44,932 bases of DNA from assembly GCA_018650465.1 (NCBI GenBank), contig JABIFY010000030.1, forward strand, positions 1-44,932, in the 5' to 3' direction. The translations under genes were made by a program, and so were the position numbers. The notes beneath the pieces are model-generated. The model did not search any database and was not told where the DNA came from. It saw only the letters and a program-made list of their open reading frames with translations. The number at the start of each line of letters is the position of its first letter. Within the stretch, counting starts at the first letter, position 1. Source of the DNA: Alphaproteobacteria bacterium. GTDB taxonomy: Bacteria; Pseudomonadota; Alphaproteobacteria; UBA2966. Of this stretch, positions 1-44,931 are shown piece after piece.

Positions 1-139
1 CCAAAGGGGGATGTGCTCTCCTAACGGTGTGGATAAGGCCTTGCCAAGTAATTGCTGCATATTTTGAGACTTTCTTTGGTCGGAGAATCTCAAAGTATGA
101 ATCACTTCAGGGCTTTATCCTATTAAGTCGGGTACTGTG
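1..139. repeat. Left copy of 139-base terminal inverted repeat
   Basis: Positions 1-139 are, base for base, the reverse complement of 44793-44931. Identity stops sharply at 139/140, inside a reading frame that on the right side of the junction looks like a methyltransferase C-terminus. The matching right copy also stops inside a gene. The simplest reading is that both are ends of one multi-copy mobile element, probably an insertion sequence, at which the assembly stopped. No complete transposase is visible, and I could not assign an IS family from the terminal bases. Confidence 0.85.
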
Positions 140-16278: not shown

Positions 16279-18387
16279 TTATCCCTCGAGTTTGGAGAAA
16301 TCTGCAACGGCACTTAAAGCGGATCGAATTTGAGATAACAGGCGCAGACGGTTTTGCCGTAAGTCGGCATCGTCGGCGTTCACGGTAACCTTGTCGAAAA
16401 AGGCGTCAACCGGCCAACGCAAACTGGCCACGGCGGCCATGGCAGCAGCGAAGTTTTCCTCTGCCACATGATCGTTGATGAGTTTTGATTGTTCGGACAG
16501 GGCTTCAAACAGGTTTGTCTCTTCTGCATCCTGCAACAGCTTGGCATTGATGGTGCCCTCGAAACTGACCTGGTCTTTCTTTTCCTCGGCCCGCACAATA
16601 TTGGACGCCCGCTTGTACGCGGTGACCAGATTGGCGCCATCGTCACTGGCGAGGAACGTGCCAAGGGCGCGCATGCGGGCGACCAGACGGATCAAGTCAT
16701 CATCGCTGGCGACACCAAAGACGGCATCGATATGATCGTGCCGAATGCCATCGTCTTTCAGGTAAACCTTTAAACGATCCGCAATGAAGGCCATCAATTC
16801 CAGAGCAACGCGGTTGCTATCGACTTTCTCAGGTAATTCGTTGGCATACAATTCCAGGGAACTGAAAATGGCGTCCTGAAGGTTCAGGCGTAGATTGTTT
16901 TGCAGGATCAGACGGATAATTCCCAAGGCTGCGCGGCGCAGGGCGAAGGGGTCTTTTGATCCTGTAGGCTTTTGATCAATGGCGAAGAAACCGACCAGGG
17001 TATCCAGTTTGTCCGCCAGAGCCACAGCCACGCTGACCGGGGCCGTGGGGCAGGTATCTTTGGGCCCTTGTGGTGAATAATGTTCCGCAATGGCCTCGGC
17101 CACATCCGCAGGCTCGCCATCGGCCAGGGCATAATAACGGCCCATCAGGCCCTGAAGCTCGGGGAATTCGGCGACCATGCCAGAGGCCAAATCGGCCTTG
17201 GCCAGACGGGCGGCCATGTGGGCCTTGTCGGCCAACTCACCCGCTTGCGGGTCGGTCATTTGATGGGTTGTGGCAAGGGCTTTGGCGATCACACCACTCG
17301 CCAGGTTTTCCACCCGGCGTACCCGCTCGGCAACAGTGCCCAGGTTTGCATGGAAGACAATTTTTTCCAGCGCAGGCAGGCGAGCATCCAGCGGCGATTT
17401 GCGGTCCTGGTCCCAGAAAAATTTGGCATCGGCCAGACGGGCGCGAAGGACGCGTTCATTCCCGGTGACAATGGCCTTGCCACCATCTTCTGCTTTCAGA
17501 TTGGCGACAACAATAAAGCGCGGTGCCAGATCACCTTCAGCCGTTTCCAGCGAGAAATATTTCTGGTGTGCCCGCATGGAGGCCGTCAGCACTTCGCGCG
17601 GCACTTCCATGAATTCTTTGTCGATACGGCCCATCAGGGGCACGGGCCATTCCACCAGACCGGCCACTTCGCGCAGCAAGGCATCATCGGTTTGAACTGT
17701 CAGGCCTTCACTGGCCGCTTGTTTGTCAGCCCCGGCGCGGATCAAGTCCTGGCGCTCGGCGGCCTCCAGAATGACAGATGCTTCAAACAGTTTTTCGCGA
17801 TAGTCAGCAAAATTTTCAACGGCGAACAAATCTGGTGCGTGGAAGCGATGACCAGCGGTTTTGTCACCAGACTTAATGCCGGCATATTCGAAGGGCACAA
17901 CGGCCCCGTCAAACAAGGCAATGATCGTTTGCAGGGGGCGAACCCAACGTGTGTTGCCGTCACCCCATTTCATGGATTTAGGCCAGGGCAGCCCGGCACA
18001 TGATTCCACACATATCTCCCCCAGCACATCGATGCTGGCGCGGCCCTGCTTTTCAATCACGGCAAACAACACATTGCCCTTGGGTGTTTCGCGTTCCTCC
18101 ACCTGGTCGCGGGTCAGGCCGACGGATCGCAGGAAACCTTCAATGGCTTTTTCAGGCGCGTCGACCTTGGGGCCTTTGCGTTCTTCGCGAGTGTCTGGCT
18201 GTTCGGTCGGCAGGCCTTCAATCACCACTGTCAGACGGCGTGGCGTGGCGTAACAGTCAGCCGTCTCAAAGATCAGGCCAGCTTCTTTCAGACCAGCCAA
18301 AACAAGACGTTTCAAATCGTTGGCCGCCGTCGCCTGCATACGGGCAGGGATTTCTTCGGAGCGTAGCTCAAGCAGGAATTCAGCCAT
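16279..18387 (-). CDS. glyS: Glycyl-tRNA synthetase beta subunit
   Basis: A 702-residue beta chain of the heterotetrameric bacterial glycyl-tRNA synthetase. The N-terminus [17 protein letters not shown] is characteristic. A central HD-like region and a C-terminal anticodon-binding domain ([22 protein letters not shown] onwards) follow. I chose the ATG at 18387, which overlaps the glyQ stop by eight bases. The longer frame to 18489 lies within glyQ. Confidence 0.96.
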
Positions 18388-19285
18388 GATGCTTCTCTCC
18401 TGATCCCTGGGCCTCCACGCCATTCTTGACGAGCCAGGCTTCACAGCAGGCTTTTGACAAGGTGCGCACACGACCGATATAGGCGGCACGCTCCGTCACG
18501 CTGATGACGCCGCGGGCATCCAGCAAGTTAAAGACGTGGCTGGCTTTCATACATTGGTCATAGGCGGGCAGGGCAAGGCCTGCGTCCAGGGCGAGGGTAC
18601 ATTCAGCCTCGGCATCTTTGAAATGCTGAAACAAACGATCCGTGTCAGCCACTTCAAAATTCCAGGCCGAAAATTCCTGCTCGTTCTGCAAATAGACATC
18701 GCCATAACTGACGCCCGCGCCGTTCCAGTCCAGGTCATAGACGTTTTCGACGCCCTGCACATACATGGCCAGGCGTTCCAGGCCATAAGTTATTTCGCCG
18801 GAAACCGGATTGCATTCAAAGCCACCGACCTGCTGAAAGTAAGTGAACTGCGACACTTCCATGCCATCGCACCAGACTTCCCAACCCAGGCCCCAGGCAC
18901 CCAAAGTTGGGCTTTCCCAATCATCTTCGACAAAACGCACATCGTGATTGGCCGTATCAATGCCTAAGGCATTCAGGCTTTCCAGATATAATTCCTGAAT
19001 GTTCGCCGGGGACGGCTTCAGGATGACCTGAAACTGGTAATAATGCTGCAACCGGTTGGGGTTTTCGCCATAGCGCCCGTCGGTTGGTCGCCGCGAGGGC
19101 TGCACATAAGCCGCTTTCCAGGGTTTTGGCCCCAGGGCACGCAAGGTTGTCGCCGGGTGAAAGGTGCCCGCACCCACTTCCAGATCATAAGGCTGCAACA
19201 GCACACAGCCCTGTTTGGCCCAGAATTGTTGCAAGGTCAGGATCAAATCCTGAAATGAAGGGGCGGAGGCGTTGTTGGCCGCCAT
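18380..19285 (-). CDS. glyQ: Glycyl-tRNA synthetase alpha subunit
   Basis: A 301-residue catalytic chain of glycyl-tRNA synthetase. Family-specific segments include [44 protein letters not shown] and [19 protein letters not shown] (class II motif 2 region). The ATG at 19285 gives the normal length; further upstream codons are not supported. It heads the glyQ-glyS-ppdK operon. Confidence 0.97.
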
Positions 19286-19714: not shown

Positions 19715-19811
19715 GCTTCAACATCCAATGTTCAGGGGGGCTTGGTCAAGAGGGATTGGGAAGAAGTTGGGTTAAGCGCGGTCTATGACGACCAGCCCTT
19801 GCCAACAAACA

Positions 19812-19909
19812 CGCCGTCACCCCGCACTTGATGCGGGGTCTACGCCTTTGAATTATGTGTTTCCTTAGATATGAAGCATGGACCCCGCATCAAGTGCGGG
19901 GTGACGGCG
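19812..19909. repeat. Palindromic repeat doublet R1 (left border of cassette A)
   Basis: Two 29-base arms, 19812-19840 and 19881-19909, are perfect reverse complements, separated by 40 bases. Each arm contains its own palindrome, CCCCGCACTTGATGCGGGG. It belongs to the GTCA..CTTGAT..TGAC type of dispersed intergenic repeat common in alphaproteobacterial genomes. Related doublets in this window occur at 22159, 35435, 38608 and 43505. R1 lies downstream of cassette A. Confidence 0.9.
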
Positions 19910-19962
19910 TGAGTAGGGGTTGGAAAACCATAACTTGCCCAAACACCTCCCCCGCAGGCACT

Positions 19963-19993
19963 AAAAAACCCGTTCTGAAAAATCATGAACGGG
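19963..19993 (-). terminator. Rho-independent terminator after cassette A
   Basis: On the minus strand CCCGTTC (19993-19987) pairs with GAACGGG (19975-19969) and is followed by six T. An outer stem (CCTCC..CGCAGGC near 19946-19960 with GCCTGCGGAGG near 19999-20010) flanks it. It lies about 35 bases beyond the stop of the cassette A tag protein. Confidence 0.85.
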
Positions 19994-20026
19994 GGCGGGC
20001 CTGCGGAGGAGTGGGGGCAGATCAAA

Positions 20027-20920
20027 CTACCAGAGTCTCTTTCGTTTCGATTGTTCGTGTCGCGCCAAATCCGTCAGGGTTGGATTGAGGGGCAAACGGA
20101 ATTCCTCCTCGTCGACCTCTGGCTGCGGATTTGGATCAGCTGCTGCAAGCCGCCGGGCGACGGACTCATTTTTCGCCACGTCCGGATATTTTGTGATCGC
20201 CATGGCCACAGCATCGTCCGACCAGGGCTCGTACTCATCCTCATTGTAACCCATGGCCGGATACATCTTCTCCGCCGTCGACAGTTCCTGCCCATCACGC
20301 CGAACCAGTGGCGGTAACTGCGGCTTGCCCATACTCGGATAGAGGCCATCCAGCATCTTCCGCTGCCGGGCATTTTCGGCCTCATAGTCCGGAACGACCG
20401 GGGCAGATGGTGTCAAGGTGTTCACGGGGAATGTGTCGTTGCGCGTGTTCAACGGGGAGATTGGTTGCGAACCCTGGGCGGGTCGAGAAGGTGGGTTAAT
20501 ATTCACCCCTTTCGCACGAGATTGTTGTGCTTGATGATTTCCATATCCATCAGCTTGACTAATATTGTCGAAGCCACTCTTTCCTGGGTCAAGAGAACTC
20601 TTCTGATTACCGTTCCCCGGTGCATTATTGTCATCGGGTTCTGATTCAAGAGCTGTAATTTTGGCATTGATAGAGTCAATATTTTTATTGATAATTATCA
20701 TCGCACTCACAGCATTATTCATACCTGTGACAATTTTGTTGTAGATTTTCTTTTTTTCTCTTCGCTCCTCTGATATTGGGGGTGCGCTAATGTAATCGTC
20801 ATACGCTCCAGATTCCTTTCCTTTTAGATTCCAGTATATTTTGTCTTGATCGGACCACAAACTTTGTTCTGCGGTCAATTTTTGCTTAAGCCTCTCTAAT
20901 CTTTCAGCCTTACTGGCCAT
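20027..20920 (-). CDS. Cassette A protein with shared C-terminal domain (coiled-coil type)
   Basis: A 297-residue hydrophilic protein of unknown function. Residues about 1-100 are charged and heptad-like (AERLERLKQKLTAEQSLW and INKNIDSINAKITALE), probably coiled coil. A Gly/Asn/Ser/Pro-rich linker follows. The last 96 residues, from LPPLVRRDGQELSTAEKMYP, match the C-termini of the proteins at 35697 and 43739. Shared features are LPPLVR-D-Q, EK-YPxM-Y-E--YE-W and a later NPT--DL. The linker also has a LYPSM copy. There is no signal peptide or membrane segment. An AGGA site precedes the ATG, but a Rho-independent terminator ends only about 16 bases upstream, so expression must involve readthrough. 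I know of no characterised homologue. Confidence 0.75.
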   Translation of the reverse strand: MASKAERLERLKQKLTAEQSLWSDQDKIYWNLKGKESGAYDDYISAPPISEERREKKKIYNKIVTGMNNAVSAMIIINKNIDSINAKITALESEPDDNNAPGNGNQKSSLDPGKSGFDNISQADGYGNHQAQQSRAKGVNINPPSRPAQGSQPISPLNTRNDTFPVNTLTPSAPVVPDYEAENARQRKMLDGLYPSMGKPQLPPLVRRDGQELSTAEKMYPAMGYNEDEYEPWSDDAVAMAITKYPDVAKNESVARRLAAADPNPQPEVDEEEFRLPLNPTLTDLARHEQSKRKRLW

Positions 20921-20935
20921 TGTCTTTTCCTCATT

Positions 20936-20959
20936 AAAAAAGACCGCGCATGGCGGTCT
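20936..20959 (-). terminator. Leader terminator directly before the cassette A tag gene
   Basis: On the minus strand AGACCGC (20959-20953) pairs with GCGGTCT (20947-20941) around a 5-base loop and runs into T6. The T run ends about seven bases before the AGGA ribosome site of the gene starting at 20920, leaving no room for a promoter in between. The same layout occurs at 37357-37382 and 44639-44662, so it may be an attenuator. Confidence 0.8.
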
Positions 20960-20998
20960 CAGGTTTCTTGGGTGAATGTTAGGTGTTTGATAAATATT

Positions 20999-21013
20999 CT
21001 ATTGTTCGTTCAT
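20999..21013 (-). promoter_or_regulatory. Leader mini-ORF MNEQ* with strong Shine-Dalgarno, cassette A
   Basis: On the minus strand AGAAAGGAAACGAT precedes ATG AAC GAA CAA TAG. The four-codon frame lies between the membrane-protein gene and the leader terminator. Cassettes B and C have mini-ORFs (MSMN* and MT*) at the same place, each with a strong Shine-Dalgarno. This suggests a ribosome-dependent leader rather than a coding product. Function is inferred only. Confidence 0.45.
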
Positions 21014-21045
21014 ATCGTTTCCTTTCTGTATCTGAATCGCCTTGA

Positions 21046-21927
21046 TTATCTTGAGGGGCCAAACAAATTGAGGCCTGTCATTTCATATATTGCCACTAGA
21101 AATCTTCCAATCATTTCCGTGATTTCGTCGGACAGAAAATTGTATTCACGGATATTGCCAATTTTCCGGGGGTTGATGCCGTGAATATCCCCATCCAGAA
21201 CTGTCGAAACGTCCTTGCCTTCCAAGCCAACAAATTTAGCATCAAGTCCCCCCCAAACCAGATGCGGATAAAAATAGCCGCTGCGATCGGAATTTGGTAA
21301 ACACGTAAATTTGTCATTGGCCTGAATGAATTTCAGATGCCCGTCATCTTCACAGAGATCCTTGGAAGGCATAGCTAGAATCTTGCTTATGTAGGGGTGT
21401 GGATATACGCGATCCATGAGGACGTAATCTCCAACTGAAACAATATCTGTATCAAGTGTCCTATGGTCATATTCGATGATGTCATTCAAGCAAAATACAG
21501 GGCAAAGATTATTGTTGTCATGGACCAGAAGTCTTGAATTTCCTGGATTGTGGTAAGGAATGGAATACAGGCCAAAGGCACAAACTGCGATCAGAAACGG
21601 GTTGATCTCTGGTTTTCTGTTTTTCAGATTTCTTATGTCCAGTGCCAATAGTATCCATGAAACATGCTGAACCAATTTTGCAATCAGAATGGCAAAATCC
21701 TGTACAGGATACGTTTCTTTGGACAGGTCGTAGGGAAGGTTAATCGTCACAAATTCGGCAGCGAAGTATCCCGCCAGCAAAAGACCTCCAAACAGTCGTC
21801 TTTTGCTGGCGATCTGATGCAGGCCGGGCACTATGATGAAGATCGCAAGCCTGGTGACATATTTCACCCCGCGCGCAACTGTCCAGTCAGGCGGCAGAAA
21901 AGGTATTTTTGATTGCATGAGTTCCAT
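21046..21927 (-). CDS. Cassette A membrane protein with divergent signal-peptidase-like domain
   Basis: A 293-residue protein. The N-terminal half has about four hydrophobic segments, including VTRLAIFIIVPGLHQI, FGGLLLAGYFAAEFV and a pair around VSWILLALDI and FLIAVCAFGLYSI. The C-terminal half should be outside the membrane. It aligns by eye with the cassette B protein (37506): VPGLH followed by basic residues and GLLL, then CPxxC, VGD-V, S-K/R-ILA and a later single Cys. Part of this resembles box D and the following strand of signal peptidase I (S26). The catalytic Ser box is not visible and the Lys position is Ser, so proteolysis is unlikely. The start is uncertain between 21927 and 21918. 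The promoter at 22050-22078 probably drives it. Confidence 0.6.
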   Translation of the reverse strand: MELMQSKIPFLPPDWTVARGVKYVTRLAIFIIVPGLHQIASKRRLFGGLLLAGYFAAEFVTINLPYDLSKETYPVQDFAILIAKLVQHVSWILLALDIRNLKNRKPEINPFLIAVCAFGLYSIPYHNPGNSRLLVHDNNNLCPVFCLNDIIEYDHRTLDTDIVSVGDYVLMDRVYPHPYISKILAMPSKDLCEDDGHLKFIQANDKFTCLPNSDRSGYFYPHLVWGGLDAKFVGLEGKDVSTVLDGDIHGINPRKIGNIREYNFLSDEITEMIGRFLVAIYEMTGLNLFGPSR

Positions 21928-22030
21928 ACCCTCCAGTATGAAGGGATTAGAGGTTTTTTTTCAGAAATGCTTGAATTTTGTTGATGCGGGCCGGAATTGG
22001 TCTATTTCGCTAGCCTGTTCTGGCGCGAAA

Positions 22031-22078
22031 CCCCATCACATCTTTTTGCAAATTACAGGAATGGAAACTCTATGTCAA
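22031..22078 (-). promoter_or_regulatory. Cassette A promoter and conserved initial transcribed region
   Basis: On the minus strand TTGACA (22078-22073), a 17-base spacer and TAATTT (22055-22050) form a sigma-70-type promoter. It is followed by 20 bases (22050-22031, TGCAAAAAGATGTGATGGGG) found identically in front of the cassette B membrane gene at 38531-38512, at exactly the same offset from the -10. Upstream of the -35, both have an AT-rich TTTACG-containing stretch. The leader before the start codon is about 115 bases. Confidence 0.7.
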
Positions 22079-22158
22079 CGTATAAAACATAATATGCGTA
22101 AATGGTTTGATGCTGGAGTTATGTTGTATGTTTATCCGTCACTCGCCGACAAAACCCA

Positions 22159-22251
22159 CGTCACCCCGCACTTGATGCGGGGTCTACGCTTGTGATTTCT
22201 GCACTGACATGAGAACGAAGCATGGATGCCGGATCAAGTCCGGCATGACGG
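22159..22251. repeat. Palindromic repeat doublet R2 (right border of cassette A)
   Basis: The left arm (CGTCACCCCGCACTTGATGC.. at 22159) is the same type as in R1. The right arm, ending GCATGACGG at 22251, is the ATGCCGGATCAAGTCCGGCAT variant. Like R1 it is followed within about 40 bases by TAACTTGCCC, so similar sequence lies on both sides of cassette A. It sits between the cassette and the 3' end of the RND permease gene. Confidence 0.85.
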
Positions 22252-35434: not shown

Positions 35435-35554
35435 CTCCGTCATGCCGGACCCGATCCGGCATCTACGCGGTTGGATCGGGTTCAGCGGGAAGAGACTAAA
35501 TGATGCCCAGAATATGCGAAGCATGGACCCCGCATCAAGTGCGGGGTGACGGAG
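35435..35554. repeat. Palindromic repeat doublet R3 (left border of cassette B)
   Basis: The left arm is CTCCGTCATGCCGGACCCGA.. (palindromic, from 35435). The right arm, ending 35554, is the GACCCCGCATCAAGTGCGGGGTGAC variant identical in core to R1. The outer ends CTCCGTCA and TGACGGAG are mutually inverted. It follows the RNA methyltransferase gene and could also act as its transcription stop. Confidence 0.85.
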
Positions 35555-35597
35555 TATAGTGTGGTAAGGCCGTTCAGAAATTGAGAGGCAGTCGGCC
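35547..35597 (+). repeat. Left copy of ~51-base direct repeat flanking cassette B
   Basis: This segment, starting at the end of R3, matches 38698-38748 at about 43 of 51 positions by eye. Shared blocks include AAGGCCG, TCAGAAATTGAG and GGCAGT. Cassette B lies exactly between the copies. The repeat may simply be the extended edge of the palindromic element, or a trace of how the cassette was inserted. Confidence 0.65.
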
Positions 35598-35696: not shown

Positions 35697-37331
35697 CTAC
35701 AATTTCCCCTGCTTCTTCTGCTTCCAGACGCCCGCCCGATAAAGGTCCTTGAAGGTCGGGTTCTCCGGTTCTTCAAAATAGTTCGGGTCCAGCAAATCAT
35801 CCGGATGATCCGGCACCAGCTGCTGACTTTCTTCAATCTGGCGCGGTAACTCAGGGTACCGCTTCGTAGCCTTGGTAATCGCTTCCTCAGGCCAGGCCTC
35901 GTAGACATTCTCCTTATAAGCCATGGCCGGATACAATTTTTCGCTCAACTTCAATGGTTGCCCATCGAGACGGACCAGCGGGGGTAATCCACGAAGTTCT
36001 TTGCTTGTCGTTGCGTCAGAATTTATTGATTTGGCGCTCGGGTCTTCATAACGCAGGGCCGTATCAAAGAGATCAGCGCTTTGGGTGGCGCCATTGTGAT
36101 CCTGGTATTCATACGATCCACGACCGAAGACTTTGGCATCTGGTCCAACGTCAATTGCTTGTTCGTCTGACATCAAATTAACCGACGTCAGACCACCATC
36201 TTTGCTCATATGTAATTCGCCAGGATCCGTTTGGCCGTCTTGGTCAACATCCTGCCAAACTCCAAATTTTGACCAGGCCTCATCGCGTTCATCCAGCACG
36301 CCATCTTCGTTGCCGCCTTGTGCGATTTGGTCAAACCAGGCAAGCCCTTCAAGATCAGTTTTTGCCGTAGCCAAAAAATCCTTGAAGGCAATTTCATCCC
36401 AATGCGATATCAGTCTATCGCCGTCTTCATCATAGACCGGTACACCATCATCCGGACTGACCCAGGCCAATAGTTGCCGCCGACCAGTACCCGTAACGTC
36501 AAAGCGCGCCTGAGATTGAGAAGGCGGTATGACGTCAATGCGACCATCTCCATCAAGGTCAAGCACAATGGGAAAACCCCATCCCCCGGCCCCTTCCGTG
36601 TCTGAGCCCAGCCCATCCATACCGAAATCACCTGGTGCACCGGAAAAAGATGCGCTGCCCGTGCTTGAATCGGACGGACCACCCTGGCCCGCGTTGAAGT
36701 TTGCTTCCGCCTGCGATTCTGCGGCACCACCACCTGATCCACCTGTGGCTCCCCAGCCGTCGGCGGCGGAACCTGAAAAGGACTGGCTACCAGTGCTGGA
36801 ATCTGATGTGCCGCCCTGGGCAGAGTTGTATTCAGCTTCAGCCATTGATGAAGGCTTGCCGCCGCCTGATCCCCCTGTGCTGCCCCAGCCTGATTCAACG
36901 CCACCTGGTATGCCTCCCCAGATGTCGATAGACCCAATCTTCGCTTTGGTTTTTTCTCTCTCGGCTTTTTGCCTTTCTGCATATTGGGCAAGCTGTACTG
37001 CCAGTTCTTCTGTGACAGGTCTGGCCAAAGGGTGCGTTACAAATTTGTCAATTGTTCGAGCTACTTTTGTTCTGTTCTGATTGACGGGCCTTTCAGATAG
37101 CGGCCGGTTTTGGTTTACAGGTCGGGGAGGTGCTTTTGGTTTCGGTTTACCTTTGATAAAGTCTTTGAATTTTCCGATATATTTTGGAGCTTGCTTCGCG
37201 CCAGCTATCAATCCGTTAATAAGTGGGCGTGCCCAGGCTGTTTCAATGTTGGTTGTAGTCGCCAACGGACTATCGGTTGTTGGCTGAGAGCCTTTCGGGG
37301 CAAAGAAGTTACTTTCGCCAAAATTTGACAT
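35697..37331 (-). CDS. Cassette B protein: Gly/Ser repeats, RTX-type calcium domain, shared C-terminal domain
   Basis: About 544 residues, function unknown. The N-terminal ~145 residues are Pro/Lys/Gln-rich with a helical part. Two tandem repeats of about 43 residues (about 148-234; each GWG-TGGSGGG ... GQGG/AQGG-SDSSTGS-SFSG) follow. Next is an Asp-rich domain (about 253-431) beginning VLDLDGDGRIDV, then FDVTGTGRRQLLAWVSPDDG and VWQDVDQDGQTDPGEL. This is the pattern of the calcium-binding region in RTX and large secreted proteins. The last 96 residues match cassettes A and C. No N-terminal signal peptide is visible. I chose the ATG at 37331 because GGATAATATC precedes it; the ATG at 37343 lies close behind a terminator T run without a Shine-Dalgarno. 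Confidence 0.75.
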   Translation of the reverse strand: MSNFGESNFFAPKGSQPTTDSPLATTTNIETAWARPLINGLIAGAKQAPKYIGKFKDFIKGKPKPKAPPRPVNQNRPLSERPVNQNRTKVARTIDKFVTHPLARPVTEELAVQLAQYAERQKAEREKTKAKIGSIDIWGGIPGGVESGWGSTGGSGGGKPSSMAEAEYNSAQGGTSDSSTGSQSFSGSAADGWGATGGSGGGAAESQAEANFNAGQGGPSDSSTGSASFSGAPGDFGMDGLGSDTEGAGGWGFPIVLDLDGDGRIDVIPPSQSQARFDVTGTGRRQLLAWVSPDDGVPVYDEDGDRLISHWDEIAFKDFLATAKTDLEGLAWFDQIAQGGNEDGVLDERDEAWSKFGVWQDVDQDGQTDPGELHMSKDGGLTSVNLMSDEQAIDVGPDAKVFGRGSYEYQDHNGATQSADLFDTALRYEDPSAKSINSDATTSKELRGLPPLVRLDGQPLKLSEKLYPAMAYKENVYEAWPEEAITKATKRYPELPRQIEESQQLVPDHPDDLLDPNYFEEPENPTFKDLYRAGVWKQKKQGKL

Positions 37332-37356
37332 GATATTATCCATTCTGTTCGTACAT

Positions 37357-37382
37357 AAAAAAAAAGGCCGCTAAAAGCGGCC
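37357..37382 (-). terminator. Leader terminator directly before the cassette B tag gene
   Basis: On the minus strand GGCCGCT (37382-37376) pairs with AGCGGCC (37372-37366) around three bases and is followed by nine T. The T run ends about 25 bases before the chosen ATG of the tag gene. Same position and type as in cassettes A and C. Confidence 0.85.
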
Positions 37383-37418: not shown

Positions 37419-37433
37419 CTAATTCATACTCAT
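37419..37433 (-). promoter_or_regulatory. Leader mini-ORF MSMN* with strong Shine-Dalgarno, cassette B
   Basis: On the minus strand AAAAGGAGAACCTA precedes ATG AGT ATG AAT TAG. It lies between the membrane-protein gene and the leader terminator, matching the position of MNEQ* in A and MT* in C. The Shine-Dalgarno is stronger than that of either flanking gene. Confidence 0.45.
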
Positions 37434-37505: not shown

Positions 37506-38339
37506 TTAATCTCTTTGATAATAGATATCACCAAGAAACACGGCGCTTGAAAACGTAGCAGACAGGGCTTCAGACCAATTTGCGACAACCACAGGGTTGA
37601 TGCCAATAATTTGGTTTGATGAAATCAAACCTTGATGGACATATTGGTCCCATTTTCCGGGTGCGTTGTCGTTTCCAAAGACGTAAAACTGTTCCGGTCC
37701 TGCAAGGACGTCAACTTTGCACATCGATTTCTCAGAGTTTTCAACCAAAATTTCGGGTTTTTCGTCAATACAAACTGCTTGACCAGCCGTGGCCAAAATT
37801 CTACTTGCGAACTCTTCTTGATCAACTTCGTAGACAACGATGTCGCCAACGGTGGGAATCGTTTTCACTTGGCTGGTTTCCCTCACTGGGGTGTACGCAG
37901 CAAATTCACCAAAACAAATTTCAGGACACATTTGCTGGTCAAATGCGAGATATAGTTCAGTATTTTCCAAATGTTCGCTGTCACTAGGCCAATAAAACGC
38001 AGTCAAATAAATCATCGCAATTATTATTGACCGAGTTCCGATGCCTCTGTGACTCAAATTTGCCAAATCAAAAACGACAAAAATGAATGATAGCAAAGTT
38101 GCGAGAAGGAACATCAATATCACCACCTGAAGTCCGAAATACCAGGAGTGTGATACCTTGAAGGGCATTGCATCCATGATTAATATTCCAGCAAGCAACG
38201 GAATTAGCAGGAGCAGGCCAGTTTTTTTCTTCCCTAATGACAGTAGATGCAATCCGGGCACATGTAGAAACAAAAGCAACTTGAGCAGATAACTCATCAC
38301 TTGAGATGTCCTGCCACTTCCAACAAATTTTAATGCCAT
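37506..38339 (-). CDS. Cassette B membrane protein with divergent signal-peptidase-like domain
   Basis: A 277-residue protein paralogous to the one at 21046. Four hydrophobic segments occupy roughly residues 14-140, beginning YLLKLLLFLHVPGLHLLS, followed by KKK and GLLLLIPLLAGILI. The outer domain then resembles type I signal peptidase. VGDIVVYEV matches box D, ASRILATAGQAV matches the strand that normally carries the catalytic Lys (here Ser), and FYVFGNDNAPGKWDQYVHQG followed by IIGIN matches box E. No SMxPT serine box is seen. Cys residues (CPEIC, VC, MC) match those in cassette A and could form disulfides. It is probably a non-catalytic S26 relative. The start is uncertain (38339 or 38297). 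Confidence 0.65.
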   Translation of the reverse strand: MALKFVGSGRTSQVMSYLLKLLLFLHVPGLHLLSLGKKKTGLLLLIPLLAGILIMDAMPFKVSHSWYFGLQVVILMFLLATLLSFIFVVFDLANLSHRGIGTRSIIIAMIYLTAFYWPSDSEHLENTELYLAFDQQMCPEICFGEFAAYTPVRETSQVKTIPTVGDIVVYEVDQEEFASRILATAGQAVCIDEKPEILVENSEKSMCKVDVLAGPEQFYVFGNDNAPGKWDQYVHQGLISSNQIIGINPVVVANWSEALSATFSSAVFLGDIYYQRD

Positions 38340-38511
38340 GTTATCAAACCCGTTAGATCAAAGCGGTTTTACAATAAGGAAAGCTCTGTTCAACTCAAAG
38401 GCATCCATACGCTCTATTATGCAGGGATCAGGGGTGTTTTTTGATTGATCGAGATAGTTTTTTGATATGTGCCAGGATCGACAATCACTCGTCCGTCTTG
38501 ATGGTGTTCAT

Positions 38512-38559
38512 CCCCATCACATCTTTTTGCACAATATACGGTTTTTAAGTATTTGTCAA
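38512..38559 (-). promoter_or_regulatory. Cassette B promoter and conserved initial transcribed region
   Basis: On the minus strand TTGACA (38559-38554), a 17-base spacer and TATTGT (38536-38531) are followed by the 20-base block 38531-38512 that is identical to the one in cassette A. Upstream of the -35, 38566-38580 contains the near-perfect palindrome TACGCATTATACGTA, a possible operator. The leader to the start codon is about 185 bases. Confidence 0.7.
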
Positions 38560-38607: not shown

Positions 38608-38705
38608 CGTCACTCTGGGCTTGATCCGGAGTCTCTGCAGCTTGTCCGCAATGTGTGCAGGCGGCAAGTCGCCAGAGATTCCGGGTCAAGCCCGGAATGA
38701 CGGCG
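38608..38705. repeat. Palindromic repeat doublet R4 (right border of cassette B)
   Basis: A more diverged doublet. The left arm is CGTCACTCTGGGCTTGATCC.. from 38608. The right arm is ATTCCGGGTCAAGCCCGGAATGACGGCG to 38705. A second internal inverted pair (CTTGTCCGC / GCGGCAAG) lies between them. It sits upstream of the cassette B promoter. Confidence 0.8.
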
Positions 38706-38748
38706 TGTGGTGTGGCAAGGCCGCTCAGAAATTGAGGGGCAGTTGTCC
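38698..38748 (+). repeat. Right copy of ~51-base direct repeat flanking cassette B
   Basis: Matches 35547-35597 in the same orientation with about eight mismatches. It begins at the end of doublet R4, exactly as the left copy begins at the end of R3, and stops just before the stop codon of the convergent-side AhpD-like gene. Confidence 0.65.
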
Positions 38749-38756
38749 CTCAATCC

Positions 38757-39332
38757 CTACCGGTTTTGCCCGTGATATTGCAGGTTAGGCATCATGTCGA
38801 TGGCCAGGGCGACGCGGTTGGACATGTTAAAAAAGGCGGCAGTGTCGGCGACGTCGAAGATATCAGCATCGGAAAAGCCCACATCGCGCAAAGACTGGCG
38901 GTCGGCTTCGTTCATGTTTTTGGGGTTTTCGGTCATCTTGACGGCGAAGTCGAGCATGGTGCGCTGGCGGGGCTCCAGTTTGGCATTGCGATAATTCATG
39001 ACCAGCAATTCACCCAGCACCGGATCACCGGAATAGGCCCGCACGGCCTGGCCGTGCGAGACCAGGCAATAAACACATTTGTTTTCCGACGAAACCGCCA
39101 CGGCAATCATTTCCCGCTCCAGCTTGCTCAGGCCACTGTCGCCCAGCATCAGGCCATTATACATGGCGCTGAAAGCGGCCAGTTTTTCCGGATGCCAGGC
39201 ATAGGCCAGCAATACATTCGGGACCATGCCGAGCTTTTCCTGGCATTTTTCAAAATAGGCCTGGGTGCGTTCGTCCAGGTCGCCCTGTTTCAGATCAAGG
39301 GCCATAACGTGGGTGGGTTGATAGTCAGACAT
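38757..39332 (-). CDS. Carboxymuconolactone-decarboxylase/AhpD-like peroxidase-related protein
   Basis: A 191-residue all-helical protein. The core EREMIAVAVSSENKCVYCLVSHGQAVR has the CxxC plus downstream His of the AhpD/CMD superfamily. The N-terminal EKLGMVPNVLLAYAWHPEKLAAFSAMYNGLM is typical of the uncharacterised peroxidase-related subgroup. Such proteins reduce peroxides or disulfides through the CxxC pair. It follows aroC with a gap of about 66 bases and is probably co-transcribed or has its own promoter. Confidence 0.85.
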   Translation of the reverse strand: MSDYQPTHVMALDLKQGDLDERTQAYFEKCQEKLGMVPNVLLAYAWHPEKLAAFSAMYNGLMLGDSGLSKLEREMIAVAVSSENKCVYCLVSHGQAVRAYSGDPVLGELLVMNYRNAKLEPRQRTMLDFAVKMTENPKNMNEADRQSLRDVGFSDADIFDVADTAAFFNMSNRVALAIDMMPNLQYHGQNR

Positions 39333-43309: not shown

Positions 43310-43504
43310 GGCCCAACGTTTTTGATTGATCCTGTTTGCGGCCTGCCAGCACAGCATACCGCAAACGATTATTTAGCCAGAGGAATCATACCAAATGGTT
43401 AATACGGGGGGAGGGGGCGGCTGGTTTTGGCCGAAATGGAACCTGACTGAGAAATCCCGACGCCGGACCCAGCCACCACACGCTCCGTCACCGACCACCA
43501 CACG

Positions 43505-43610
43505 CTCCGTCACCCCGCACTTGATGCGGGGTCTACGCTTCTCCGAATTACACAACGCAGTGCAAAGGGAACAGAAGCATGGATCCCGCATCAAGTGCGG
43601 GATGACGGAG
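43505..43610. repeat. Palindromic repeat doublet R5 (left border of cassette C)
   Basis: Arms from CTCCGTCACCCCGCACTTGA (43505) and to CGGGATGACGGAG (43610) are inverted relative to each other with few mismatches, like R1. Just upstream, about 20 bases (CCACCACACGCTCCGTCACC) occur twice in tandem (around 43473 and 43496), extending the left edge. The rest of the 43310-43738 gap holds a G-rich stretch (43405-43420), this doublet and the terminator below. Confidence 0.88.
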
Positions 43611-43668
43611 TGTGTTAAATCTCGTCCTGGCGGAATTTGCCAATCACAACCGCCCCGACCGCAGGCAC

Positions 43669-43738: not shown

Positions 43739-44617
43739 TTACAATTTGCCCTGTTTCTTCTGCTTCCAAACAGACGCCCGATAAAGGTCCTTTAAGGTCG
43801 GGTTCTCCGGCTCCTCAAAATAATCCGGGTCCAGCAAATCATCGGGGTGGTCGGGCACAAGCTGGCGACTTTCCTCAATCTGGCGCGGTAACTCAGGATA
43901 ACGCTCCGTGGCCTGGGCTATCGCTTCCTCAGGCCAGGCCTCGTACACATTCTCCTTGTACGCCATAATCGGATACATTTTTTCACTTAGCTTCAACGGC
44001 TGTTGATCGAGACGGACCAGCGGCGGCAGGTCTTTTGCACCAGGTGTCATGGAGGGATACAAAGTGTTCGTCGCAGGTTTTTCCTGAACAATTGTCGGCG
44101 ATGGGATTGTAGGTGCCGGAATATTTCGTACTGCTAACTCCTTTTGGCGTTGCTCCAAAATTGCTTGGCGTTCAGCCAGTTTTTGCCTGAGTTTTTCTTC
44201 TTCAGCCAGGTTATTTGGCGTTGCTGGAGCATTACTTTCCATCGATGCTCCATCCGGAAATGGAATTTGAAAACCTTGTTGAAATTGTTTTGCCTCGGTC
44301 GTCGTCGATCGGTTATCGGCTACTCTTTCAGTCTTAAGGTCTTTGATGCGCTGCTCGATGGAATCCACAATGTTTTGGGCGTCATCTTCTTCAATAATCG
44401 CATCCGATAATTCGATTGATAGCCTGTCAATTTCACCCTGGTCCCCTCGTCCGCTTGCTTGGGCCAGTTTGAAACCGATTAATTTAACTTTCGCTTCCTT
44501 TTTGGAAAGAAAATTTTTCGCTGCAACAAGCTTCCTTTTCTCGTTGTCTATTTCTTCTTTGTTCATGGGGAATTGTGGCCCTTCTTGAGCCATTCGTCTG
44601 TTGTGGTGATCTGTCAC
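43739..44617 (-). CDS. Cassette C protein with shared C-terminal domain (coiled-coil type)
   Basis: About 292 residues, function unknown. The N-terminal ~110 residues are highly charged and helical (EEIDNEKRKLVAAKNFLSKK, IDRLSIELSDAIIEEDD, IVDSIEQRIKDLKTE), probably coiled coil. The middle contains another helical KLAERQAILEQRQKELAVR and a LYPSM motif. The last 96 residues, from LPPLVRLDQQPLKLSEKMYP to KQKKQGKL, are about 90% identical by eye to cassette B and more distantly match A. There is no signal peptide. I chose the GTG at 44617, eight bases after AAGGA; the ATG at 44638 lies directly on the leader terminator's T run and has no ribosome site. Confidence 0.75.
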   Translation of the reverse strand: MTDHHNRRMAQEGPQFPMNKEEIDNEKRKLVAAKNFLSKKEAKVKLIGFKLAQASGRGDQGEIDRLSIELSDAIIEEDDAQNIVDSIEQRIKDLKTERVADNRSTTTEAKQFQQGFQIPFPDGASMESNAPATPNNLAEEEKLRQKLAERQAILEQRQKELAVRNIPAPTIPSPTIVQEKPATNTLYPSMTPGAKDLPPLVRLDQQPLKLSEKMYPIMAYKENVYEAWPEEAIAQATERYPELPRQIEESRQLVPDHPDDLLDPDYFEEPENPTLKDLYRASVWKQKKQGKL

Positions 44618-44638
44618 GGTTATGTTCCTTGTTCGCAT

Positions 44639-44662
44639 AAAAAAAGGCCGCTCGTGGCGGCC
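44639..44662 (-). terminator. Leader terminator directly before the cassette C tag gene
   Basis: On the minus strand GGCCGC (44662-44657) pairs with GCGGCC (44651-44646) around five bases and runs into seven T, which end one base before an ATG at 44638 and about 21 bases before the chosen GTG start. Third example of this arrangement in the window. Confidence 0.83.
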
Positions 44663-44692: not shown

Positions 44693-44701
44693 TCAGGTCA
44701 T
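44693..44701 (-). promoter_or_regulatory. Leader mini-ORF MT* with strong Shine-Dalgarno, cassette C
   Basis: On the minus strand GAGAGGAGCATGCA precedes ATG ACC TGA. Same place relative to the leader terminator as in cassettes A and B. An overlapping ATG CAA TGA lies only one base after GGAGC and is less likely. Confidence 0.4.
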
Positions 44702-44747
44702 TGCATGCTCCTCTCTAGCTGGTTGCTTTCTGTTTCTCTAAAAAAAT

Positions 44748-44792
44748 TCACGCCCGTCCATTTGTAAATTCGTAATATTGTATGTCCGACAA
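44748..44792 (-). pseudogene. C-terminal remnant of a third cassette membrane protein
   Basis: Fourteen codons plus TGA read LSDIQYYEFTNGRA. The cassette B membrane protein ends FLGDIYYQRD and that of A contains AIYEMTG close to its end, and the stop lies at the equivalent place upstream of the mini-ORF. I infer that cassette C once had the full membrane-protein gene, which the 139-base repeat now interrupts at 44792/44793. The match is short, so the call depends mainly on position. Confidence 0.45.
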
Positions 44793-44931
44793 CACAGTAC
44801 CCGACTTAATAGGATAAAGCCCTGAAGTGATTCATACTTTGAGATTCTCCGACCAAAGAAAGTCTCAAAATATGCAGCAATTACTTGGCAAGGCCTTATC
44901 CACACCGTTAGGAGAGCACATCCCCCTTTGG
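44793..44931. repeat. Right copy of 139-base terminal inverted repeat
   Basis: Exact reverse complement of 1-139. It begins CACAGTACCCGACTTAATAG at the junction with the cassette C remnant. On the plus strand a frame is open from 44826 to the end (SDSYFEILRPKKVSKYAAIT...), and in the other direction a frame PKGDVLS* ends within it. Either could be part of a transposase, but neither is long enough to identify. Confidence 0.85.

What the first reader, a model, noticed from the sequence alone, without database searches (positions are those of the whole stretch)
20027..20317. Shared ~96-residue C-terminal domain on three otherwise different proteins
The C-termini at 20027-20317, 35697-35987 and 43739-44029 share LPPLVR-D-Q, EK-YPxM-Y-E--YE-W, a YP near residue 45 and NPT--DL near the end. 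B and C are nearly identical; A is diverged. Preceding LYPSM motifs in A and C look like a partial repeat of YPxM. Variable N-terminus with conserved C-terminus is the logic of sorting or docking domains.
Basis: partly seen in the sequence, partly recalled or inferred. Interest (0 to 1): 0.72.

Follow-up and report, generated by a model that had tools for sequence, protein, structure and literature searches.

The report
Shared tail on swappable two-gene cassettes
An alphaproteobacterium carries about a dozen two-gene cassettes in which a signal-peptidase-like membrane protein that looks catalytically dead sits next to a protein whose front part varies but whose 96-residue tail is shared, suggesting a common plug for swappable parts whose job is still unknown.

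Summary
The shared 96-residue C-terminal domain is real. The genome holds 11 recognisable copies, the one congener examined 3. No other genome examined gave a convincing copy, and no curated family or solved structure matches it over threshold. B carries an FrpC-type self-processing module; A and C share a diverged helical N-terminus. The tail is under purifying selection (B/C dN/dS 0.07).

The tail gene mostly follows a gene for a membrane protein with a probable signal-peptidase (S26) fold; the catalytic lysine is missing in 17 of 17 scorable sequences. Of 12 intergenic regions scanned, 9 hold a terminator-like hairpin (0.03 expected). Loci A and C163 are mosaic: both ends are 80-99% identical in DNA, while the middle (most of the membrane protein plus the N-terminal domain) falls to 31-60%. 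A's tail is closer to C163's (97%) than to its orthologue's (73%).

Best reading: a common handle on swappable cassettes, with the membrane pseudo-peptidase as private partner of the variable domain. Export route and role are unproven: VirB10 and VipB markers are absent from this genome; type I components are present but not specific.

The parts
20027..20317 (-). Shared C-terminal domain of protein A (96 residues plus stop)
20030..20920 (-). Protein A, 297 aa: helical N-terminal domain (about residues 1-97), low-complexity linker, LYPSM, C-domain from residue 202
20940..20960 (-). Terminator-like hairpin with U-run, 19 bases before the start codon of A
20999..21013 (-). Short ORF ATG AAC GAA CAA TAG behind a Shine-Dalgarno-like stretch; also present in the congener with a synonymous change
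21046..21927 (-). S26-like membrane protein P0004 (type 1), partner gene of A
35697..35987 (-). Shared C-terminal domain of protein B (96 residues plus stop)
35700..37343 (-). Protein B, 548 aa: Gly-rich N-terminal half, FrpC-type self-processing-module homologue from residue 258, C-domain from residue 453
36144..36581 (-). Self-processing-module homologue in B (PHROG match, residues 255-400); Phe, not Asp, precedes the first Pro of the module
37366..37382 (-). Terminator-like hairpin with U-run, 22 bases before the start codon of B
37419..37433 (-). Short ORF ATG AGT ATG AAT TAG behind a Shine-Dalgarno-like stretch
37506..38339 (-). S26-like membrane protein P0005 (type 2), partner gene of B
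38418..38433 (-). Leader box CCCTGATCCCTGCATA shared by several modules
38531..38559 (-). Promoter-like TTGACA N17 TATTGT; a similar stretch lies upstream of other modules
43739..44029 (-). Shared C-terminal domain of protein C (96 residues plus stop)
43742..44638 (-). Protein C, 299 aa: helical N-terminal domain, linker, LYPSM, C-domain from residue 204
44646..44662 (-). Terminator-like hairpin with U-run, 7 bases before the start codon of C
44698..44792 (-). Remnant of the 3' end of an S26-like gene upstream of C (frame reads VVGHTILRIYKWTGVNFF... to a stop), cut by a 139-bp repeat at the contig end

Best explanation
The 96-residue domain is a common C-terminal handle, probably a docking or export module, on the second protein of a mosaic two-gene cassette. 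Gene 1 encodes a membrane protein with a signal-peptidase (S26) fold that has lost the catalytic lysine, and probably the serine. Its beta-domain with four conserved cysteines probably faces the periplasm and acts as a private binding partner or chaperone for the variable N-terminal domain of gene 2's product. Recombination swaps a block made of most of gene 1 and the N-terminal part of gene 2 between conserved outer ends, so that pairs stay matched while keeping the promoter, the start of gene 1 and the C-terminal handle. Gene 2 is mostly preceded by a terminator-like hairpin, so its expression is probably attenuated relative to gene 1. Shown: the domain and its copies, the gene pairing, the missing lysine, the mosaic of A and C163, purifying selection on the domain and the hairpins. 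Moderately supported: the S26 fold. Inferred: topology, partner binding, docking or export by the handle, and attenuation. A type I secretion route is only a guess, from the self-processing module in B.
For: 11 copies behind several N-terminus types in one genome and 3 in its congener. S26-like genes lie directly upstream of C-domain genes at C62 (A, B), C94, C163, C107, C58, C114 and of a C-domain remnant at C68, and in the congener at C115 and C24. Convincing rows for both families came only from this genus. S26 fold: best VIA-align rows E. coli LepB Z 7.5 and S. pyogenes SipA Z 7.2; one paralogue passes the Pfam S26 cut-off (26.5 against 22.9 bits); lysine missing in 17 of 17 scorable sequences. 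Mosaic A/C163: 80-88% identity at 21801-22100, 31-60% at 20401-21800, 81-99% at 19901-20400; tail 97% identical to C163's but 73% to its own orthologue's, S26-like 37% and 85%. Tail similarity does not clearly follow S26-like similarity over eight pairs (Mantel r 0.22, 626 of 5000 permutations reach it). dN/dS of the tail 0.07 (B/C), 0.07 (A/C163), 0.12 (C58 against the congener). Hairpin in 9 of 12 intergenic regions scanned, 0.03 expected. A confident, mostly helical model of the domain (pLDDT 86.8).
Against: No dedicated machine found: VirB10 has no match in G000 or G001 (one sub-cut-off row, in G002, among 7 genomes), VipB 0 of 7; type I HlyD is present, but also over the cut-off in 4 of 5 relatives that lack the domain. 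The L011 copy has an unrelated membrane gene upstream, so the S26-like gene is not universal. Many modules are decayed: L011 and C163 have internal stops, C68 and C69 are truncated, L005 looks frameshifted, and no gene 2 was recognised beside the S26-like genes of G001 C12 and C98. Between the A orthologues the tail is less constrained (dN/dS 0.38) than the S26-like gene (0.23). The S26 fold rests on a pLDDT 70 model with Z under 8 and Foldseek E of 0.07 or more; the catalytic Ser column could not be aligned by program. Two further pairs, at C68 and G001 C24b, have no hairpin by my reading. Type 1 pairing with helical N-termini rests on few, related loci. No match for the domain gives a function, and no topology or signal-peptide program was run.
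Confidence: 0.45

Rival explanations
1. A polymorphic toxin-immunity family turned round: the variable N-terminal domain is an antibacterial effector, the upstream membrane protein is its cognate immunity protein, and the shared C-terminal domain is the delivery domain, in the manner of the Xanthomonas X-Tfe/X-Tfi pairs.
For: The variable domain and most of the adjacent membrane partner differ as a block while the shared domain stays; decayed copies and S26-like genes without a recognised gene 2 in the congener, as could be expected of orphan immunity genes. That X-Tfes carry a conserved C-terminal delivery domain is recalled; the search counts show the terms in PMC6759196 and PMC10933484.
Against: VirB10 and VipB have no match in this genome. 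The N-terminal parts are short helical domains or a self-processing-module homologue, with no toxin match over threshold in Pfam, NCBIfam, PHROGs or PADLOC for A, B and C. An S26 fold is not what I would expect of an immunity protein (recalled, not tested).
Confidence: 0.2
2. The proteins are not exported: the C-domain is an assembly or protein-binding domain of a membrane-associated, cytoplasmic-side complex held by the S26-like membrane protein.
For: No N-terminal signal sequence is apparent on reading A, B or C (no program run); no secretion machine was shown to be specific.
Against: Conserved cysteines and the S26-like fold in the partner suggest a periplasmic domain; the Ca2+-binding self-processing-module homologue in B, L011 and G001 C24 belongs to a domain family known from exported proteins.
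Confidence: 0.17
3. An ordinary genus-specific paralogue family kept similar at its 3' end by gene conversion, the C-domain being simply the conserved part of one enzyme- or adhesin-like protein with no handle function.
For: A, C and several others are distant paralogues with related helical N-termini, and the 3' ends of A and C163 have been homogenised within the genome.
Against: B, L011 and G001 C24 put the same domain behind a wholly different Ca2+-binding module, and L004 behind another N-terminus; the domain is under strong purifying selection between such contexts (B against C dN/dS 0.07).
Confidence: 0.15

Closest known systems
SipA of Streptococcus pyogenes (PDB 4n31; PMC4049620, abstract and Discussion part 1 read)
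   Same: Signal-peptidase fold without the catalytic Ser-Lys dyad, encoded in the cluster of the surface proteins it serves; VIA-align Z 7.2 to the model of P0004.
   Different: SipA serves sortase-built pili of a Gram-positive; here there are long N-terminal hydrophobic helices, four conserved cysteines and many divergent paralogues, and the module holds only the two genes described.
FrpD-FrpC operon of Neisseria meningitidis (PMC5233953, abstract and start of introduction; PMC7078468, passages)
   Same: A membrane-anchored partner and a protein with an N-terminal part followed by a self-processing module are encoded in one operon; [quoted passage not shown] B's module matches FrpC 6sjw at E 2.3e-15.
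   Different: FrpD is an outer-membrane lipoprotein, here the partner is S26-like; B lacks the scissile Asp before Pro and the RTX nonapeptides, and ends in the new C-domain.
X-Tfe effectors with XVIPCD and their X-Tfi immunity proteins (PMC6759196, search listing; PMC10933484, abstract; the domain's role is recalled)
   Same: Conserved C-terminal delivery domain on otherwise different proteins, each with a cognate immunity protein encoded alongside.
   Different: No VirB10 match in this genome and no Pfam match over threshold for the domain.
Polymorphic toxin systems (PMC3482391, search listing only; joint exchange with the immunity gene is recalled)
   Same: Recombination diversifies one domain while a shared trafficking domain stays.
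   Different: Here the shared domain is C-terminal and the partner gene lies upstream; no toxin activity is known.
Type IX secretion C-terminal domain (PMC5445135, search listing only; details recalled)
   Same: A conserved C-terminal domain used as a sorting signal by varied cargo.
   Different: Found in Bacteroidetes; no Pfam match over threshold here.

Membership tests
Type I signal peptidase (Peptidase S26, PF10502) for the partner gene | Match over Pfam's curated cut-off | tested here: inconclusive
   Seven paralogues scanned: C157's second gene scores 26.5 against 22.9 bits; four others have no S26 row; P0005 scores 13.6 and P0004 has no S26 row.
Type I signal peptidase (Peptidase S26, PF10502) for the partner gene | Signal-peptidase fold | tested here: met
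   VIA-align of the P0004 model (pLDDT 70): E. coli LepB 3s04 Z 7.5, rmsd 3.5 over 111 residues; SipA Z 7.2; LexA Z 7.1 and lambda repressor Z 7.0 tie with them. Foldseek's best rows are signal peptidases, at E 0.07-0.1. Support is moderate.
Type I signal peptidase (Peptidase S26, PF10502) for the partner gene | Catalytic Lys of the Ser-Lys dyad | tested here: not met
   17 of 17 sequences reaching the column have Ser, Thr, Gly, Ala or Asn; the genome's own LepB has Lys. Two fragments of the 19 hits could not be scored.
Type I signal peptidase (Peptidase S26, PF10502) for the partner gene | Catalytic Ser | tested here: inconclusive
   The program misaligned this column. By eye the C157 paralogue reads HM-CPLLC-YGD against SM-LPTLQ-VGD of LepB, without Ser at that place.
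FrpC-type self-processing module (protein B) | Sequence homology with Ca2+-binding loops | tested here: met
   E 2.3e-15 to PDB 6sjw over query residues 6-169, with DLDGDG and VWQD-DQDG stretches aligned.
FrpC-type self-processing module (protein B) | Scissile Asp-Pro bond at the start of the module | tested here: not met
   Phe precedes Pro in B, Trp in L011 and Phe in G001 C24; the Asp414-Pro415 bond is from PMC7078468 passages.
RTX protein secreted by type I secretion | GGxGxD-type nonapeptide repeats | tested here: not met
   No GGxGxD in A, B or C.
RTX protein secreted by type I secretion | Type I secretion machinery in the genome | tested here: met
   Three HlyD-family proteins over the TIGR01843 cut-off in G000; also over it in 4 of 5 relatives without the domain, so not specific.
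X-Tfe / XVIPCD effectors | Type IV secretion system in the genome | tested here: not met
   VirB10 family PF03743: no match in G000; 2 of 14 control genomes ring, E. coli and Caulobacter. Only this one component was searched.
X-Tfe / XVIPCD effectors | Sequence match of the C-domain to a known delivery domain | tested here: inconclusive
   No Pfam, NCBIfam or PHROGs match to the C-domain over threshold; distant homology cannot be excluded.

The most novel reading that the evidence does not exclude
An undescribed envelope delivery or surface-assembly system in which catalytically dead signal peptidases act as private, co-inherited chaperones for variable cargo domains, all cargo carrying one common C-terminal handle, and in which chaperone ectodomain and cargo domain are shuffled together as one recombination block.
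Probability: 0.27. Interest if true: 0.8.

Novelty: new variant of a known kind. Interest (0 to 1): 0.58.

Why it matters
If the reading is right, this is a Gram-negative case of pseudo-signal-peptidases as dedicated partners of variable proteins, comparable to SipA in streptococcal pili, multiplied to about a dozen paralogues in one genome. The natural A/C163 mosaic supplies a ready-made prediction of which parts bind each other: the membrane ectodomain with the variable N-terminus, and the shared tail with a common machine. It also adds a new, confidently modelled small domain with no relatives found.

Tried and rejected
Rejected as a known domain: no Pfam, NCBIfam or PHROGs row over threshold covers the C-domain. 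One Pfam row does lie in it: S6PP on B, residues 464-508, E 0.17, 11.9 bits against a cut-off of 20.3, taken for chance. PDB sequence search gave 5 weak eukaryotic rows with E 0.36-3. Foldseek on the C-domain model gave one row with E 6.7 and BFVD three rows with E over 5; VIA-align on the 4 chains offered gave nothing. No relative in phages or plasmids at E 0.01 or IMG/VR. PADLOC gave one weak row (PbeC, E 0.027, on A residues 29-96), not followed. Pfam DUF7603 on C (E 0.0068, 17.6 against 27 bits) lies on the helical part and is below the cut-off.

Rows dropped before counts: L012 (E 0.74, aldo/keto-reductase-like by my reading). G379 (E 0.008 over 33 positions) and three Streptomyces loci L029-L031 (19-20 residues matched) were judged chance and not followed. 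In one search, G004 and G006 gave P0005 rows of 34-36 residues at E 0.003-0.008 in a hydrophobic stretch, and G000 C32 and G001 C47 similar ones; judged chance and not followed. A 50-residue S26-like fragment was left out of the alignment, and C27 has no residue at the Lys column. C163 was left out of the profile used for the coiled-coil control. One search scanned 12 intergenic regions; those after the S26-like genes of C68, G001 C24b, G001 C12, G001 C98, C129 and the first gene of C157 were not in it.

Stop-codon readthrough between the short ORF and the big ORF was considered: the frame stays open in A, C and the congener's A orthologue, but not in C163, and a second stop follows in B and C69 (my reading), so I rejected it. 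A third gene shared by the modules was sought by all-against-all comparison of ORFs of 70 residues or more in 19 sequences. Besides the two families, orthologous flanks and shadow frames, some ordinary neighbours recur in pairs; the flank beside the C107 module also resembles the flank beside the L011 module and its congener. No gene recurs across the modules as the two families do.

The leader box CCYTGNNCCCTGCATA is not confined to the modules: 18 places against 1 for the reversed control. Recounted against the module coordinates, 9 of the 18 lie before S26-like starts, 1 before the unrelated membrane gene of the L011 module and 8 elsewhere; the notebook entry says 11, which is wrong. The notebook entry takes the left contig end for an S26-like gene end, which is superseded here: it is only the shared repeat.

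A Rfam scan of the window found nothing over the gathering scores. Promoter and terminator scans as whole counts do not stand out clearly from shuffles; only the position of the hairpins is significant.

Full report
Observation. The three C-termini are real and stand at the stated coordinates on the minus strand, each 96 codons plus stop.

Distribution. A search of the window's own genome (G000, 4.8 Mb, 163 contigs; the window is the whole of contig C62) gave 12 rows with E up to 10, of which 11 are the domain: nine full or nearly full copies, one cut after about 58 residues (L011) and one 39-residue remnant (L010). Among 61 genomes searched (own genome included), 2 have it, G000 and the one congener G001 with 3 copies. 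With a profile, 3 of 385 genomes of the class have a row with E up to 0.01: these two and G379 at E 0.008 over 33 positions, which I take for chance (at most 13 first-look candidates per genome were scored). IMG/VR, phage and plasmid records gave none. No curated family over threshold and no solved structure matches the domain. Its predicted structure is compact and mostly helical, with pLDDT 86.8 and pTM 0.72.

N-termini. Most copies begin with a helical-looking domain of about 90 residues followed by a linker (my reading). Leave-one-out profile scores show these domains to be related: the real score was reached by 0 of 300 shuffles for A, C, C94, C69 and G001 C24a, by 1 for C107, by 8 for C58, and by 115 for C163, which is therefore not supported. 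B, L004 and L011 are not related to them. Shuffles destroy heptads, so as a control 27 overlapping segments of one unrelated coiled-coil protein were scored and reached at most 5.6 bits; the supported members score 10.3-17.4, but C58 only 5.6, no better than the control. B differs: residues 255-400 match PHROG 3677 and the module matches the FrpC self-processing module 6sjw at E 2.3e-15. The residue before the first proline of the module is Phe in B, Trp in L011 and Phe in G001 C24, whereas FrpC cleaves an Asp-Pro bond there (PMC7078468, passages). So this module should not self-cleave in that way.

Partner gene. Directly upstream of most C-domain genes lies a gene for a membrane protein (234-320 residues in the 14 sequences measured) with long hydrophobic helices in its N-terminal half and a beta-domain in the model of P0004; no topology program was run. 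A profile of the family matched 2 of 289 genomes of the class, both of this genus (at most 8 candidates per genome scored). Its fold resembles that of signal peptidases: E. coli LepB Z 7.5 and S. pyogenes SipA Z 7.2, tied with LexA-type relatives at 7.0-7.1; Foldseek E values are 0.07 or more, so support is moderate. One paralogue passes the Pfam S26 cut-off. In 17 of 17 sequences that reach the column the catalytic Lys is replaced, while the genome's own LepB keeps it. The Ser column could not be aligned by program; by eye there is no Ser at the equivalent place of the C157 paralogue. The CPxxC pair and two further cysteines are invariant in the 13-sequence alignment. SipA, which also lacks both catalytic residues, is essential for pilus polymerisation (PMC4049620, abstract and Discussion part 1).

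Two partner subtypes occur. By my reading, type 1 goes with helical N-termini at A, C (a remnant of the partner only), C94, C107, C58, C69, C163 (N-terminus not supported as related) and, in G001, C115 and C24a. Type 2 goes with other N-termini at B, L004 (linked only through 135 identical bases between the end of contig C157 and a stretch near the end of C68), L005 (partner split over two overlapping contig ends) and G001 C24b. In the L011 module an unrelated membrane gene stands in the same place.

Mosaic. Locus A and locus C163 are 80-88% identical at 21801-22100 (promoter region and about the first 42 codons of the partner gene) and 81-99% at 19901-20400 (part of the linker, C-domain, 3' flank), but 31-60% in between, with the outer flanks at 32-49%. 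In protein terms the C-domains are 97% and the S26-like proteins 37% identical. A against its orthologue in G001 has the opposite pattern, 73% and 85%. Recombination has therefore uncoupled the shared ends from a middle block that holds most of the partner and the variable N-terminus; whether the middle was replaced or the ends converted cannot be told. Over eight pairs, C-domain similarity does not clearly follow partner similarity (Mantel r 0.22, 626 of 5000 permutations as high). This is a small sample and a weak test.

Selection. dN/dS (Nei-Gojobori) of the C-domain is 0.073 for B/C, 0.069 for A/C163 and 0.124 for C58 against G001. Between A and its orthologue it is 0.38 for the C-domain, 0.31 for the N-terminus, 0.56 for the linker and 0.23 for the S26-like gene; dS is 0.34-0.39 for the two genes against 0.94 for the neighbouring glyQ-like gene. 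The domain is thus maintained between paralogues with different N-termini, though less tightly between the A orthologues.

Leader. Of 12 intergenic regions scanned between partner and C-domain gene, 9 hold a GC hairpin followed by a U-run, 7 to 60 bases before the start codon; shuffling predicts 0.03. Two further pairs, at C68 and G001 C24b, have none by my reading. Stems differ by compensating changes (GGCCGC/GCGGCC against GACCGC/GCGGTC) and one is wholly different in sequence (L004). Five of the 9 have a short ORF behind a Shine-Dalgarno-like stretch by a strict scan, and one (ATG AAC GAA CAA/G TAG) is conserved in the congener. Transcription from the upstream promoter must pass this hairpin, so attenuation of gene 2 is likely but not shown. 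Upstream of many partner genes lie a shared promoter-like stretch and a box CCYTGNNCCCTGCATA. The box also occurs before other genes, so it is not specific to the system.

Mechanism. The simplest account is a common C-terminal handle on cassettes whose variable domain and membrane partner change together. SipA shows how a dead signal peptidase can serve assembly of surface proteins encoded in the same cluster, and FrpD-FrpC shows a membrane-anchored partner from the same operon holding the N-terminal domain of a protein with a self-processing module (PMC5233953, abstract and start of introduction). Neither is homologous in all parts. VirB10 and VipB have no match in this genome; type I components are present but not specific. 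A toxin-immunity reading fits the recombination pattern as well, and no test here excludes it.

Prior work. Searches for inactive signal peptidases in Gram-negatives, for variable N-terminus/conserved C-terminal domain with type I secretion, for XVIPCD, polymorphic toxins, SipA and FrpC showed nothing that describes this system among the rows listed; the lists were capped and cover open-licence papers only.

Noticed in passing
window 1-139 and 44793-44931: The two contig ends carry the same 139-bp sequence in opposite orientation (100% identity); it cuts the partner gene of protein C. It is probably an insertion element at which the assembly broke.
   Followed up: partly
window 19810-19911, 22142-22251, 35518-35555, 38686-38766, 43500-43615: Dispersed short repeats around the modules (about 71-97% identical to each other, at least two of them self-complementary), in at least one place with the motif tcattccgggcttgacccggaatct.
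   Followed up: no
L110-L117 (boxes at G000 C42:5561, C142:46523, C16:1012, C59:41101, C64:4839, C83:4131, C119:61997, C129:6291): The leader box CCYTGNNCCCTGCATA occurs 18 times in the genome against 1 for the reversed control, also before genes outside the modules that read as glycine-zipper-like envelope proteins and a ComM-like protein (by eye); it may be a genome-wide leader or regulatory element.
   Followed up: partly
L085, downstream of the box at G000 C83:52858: The L011 module has an unrelated 167-residue membrane protein in the place of the S26-like partner, while the syntenic module in the congener (L089) has an S26-like gene.
   Followed up: partly
L078 (G000 C107): Two modules in tandem: a second S26-like gene starts right after the C-domain gene and runs off the contig.
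   Followed up: no
L082 (G000 C129:56-1555): A 499-residue frame that holds one whole S26-like protein and the ectodomain of a second, i.e. an internal duplication near a contig end.
   Followed up: no
window 20030-21927 against 18383-19282: Between G000 and G001 the A module has a much lower dS (0.34-0.39) than the neighbouring glyQ-like gene (0.94), which may point to exchange between the species or local rate differences.
   Followed up: no
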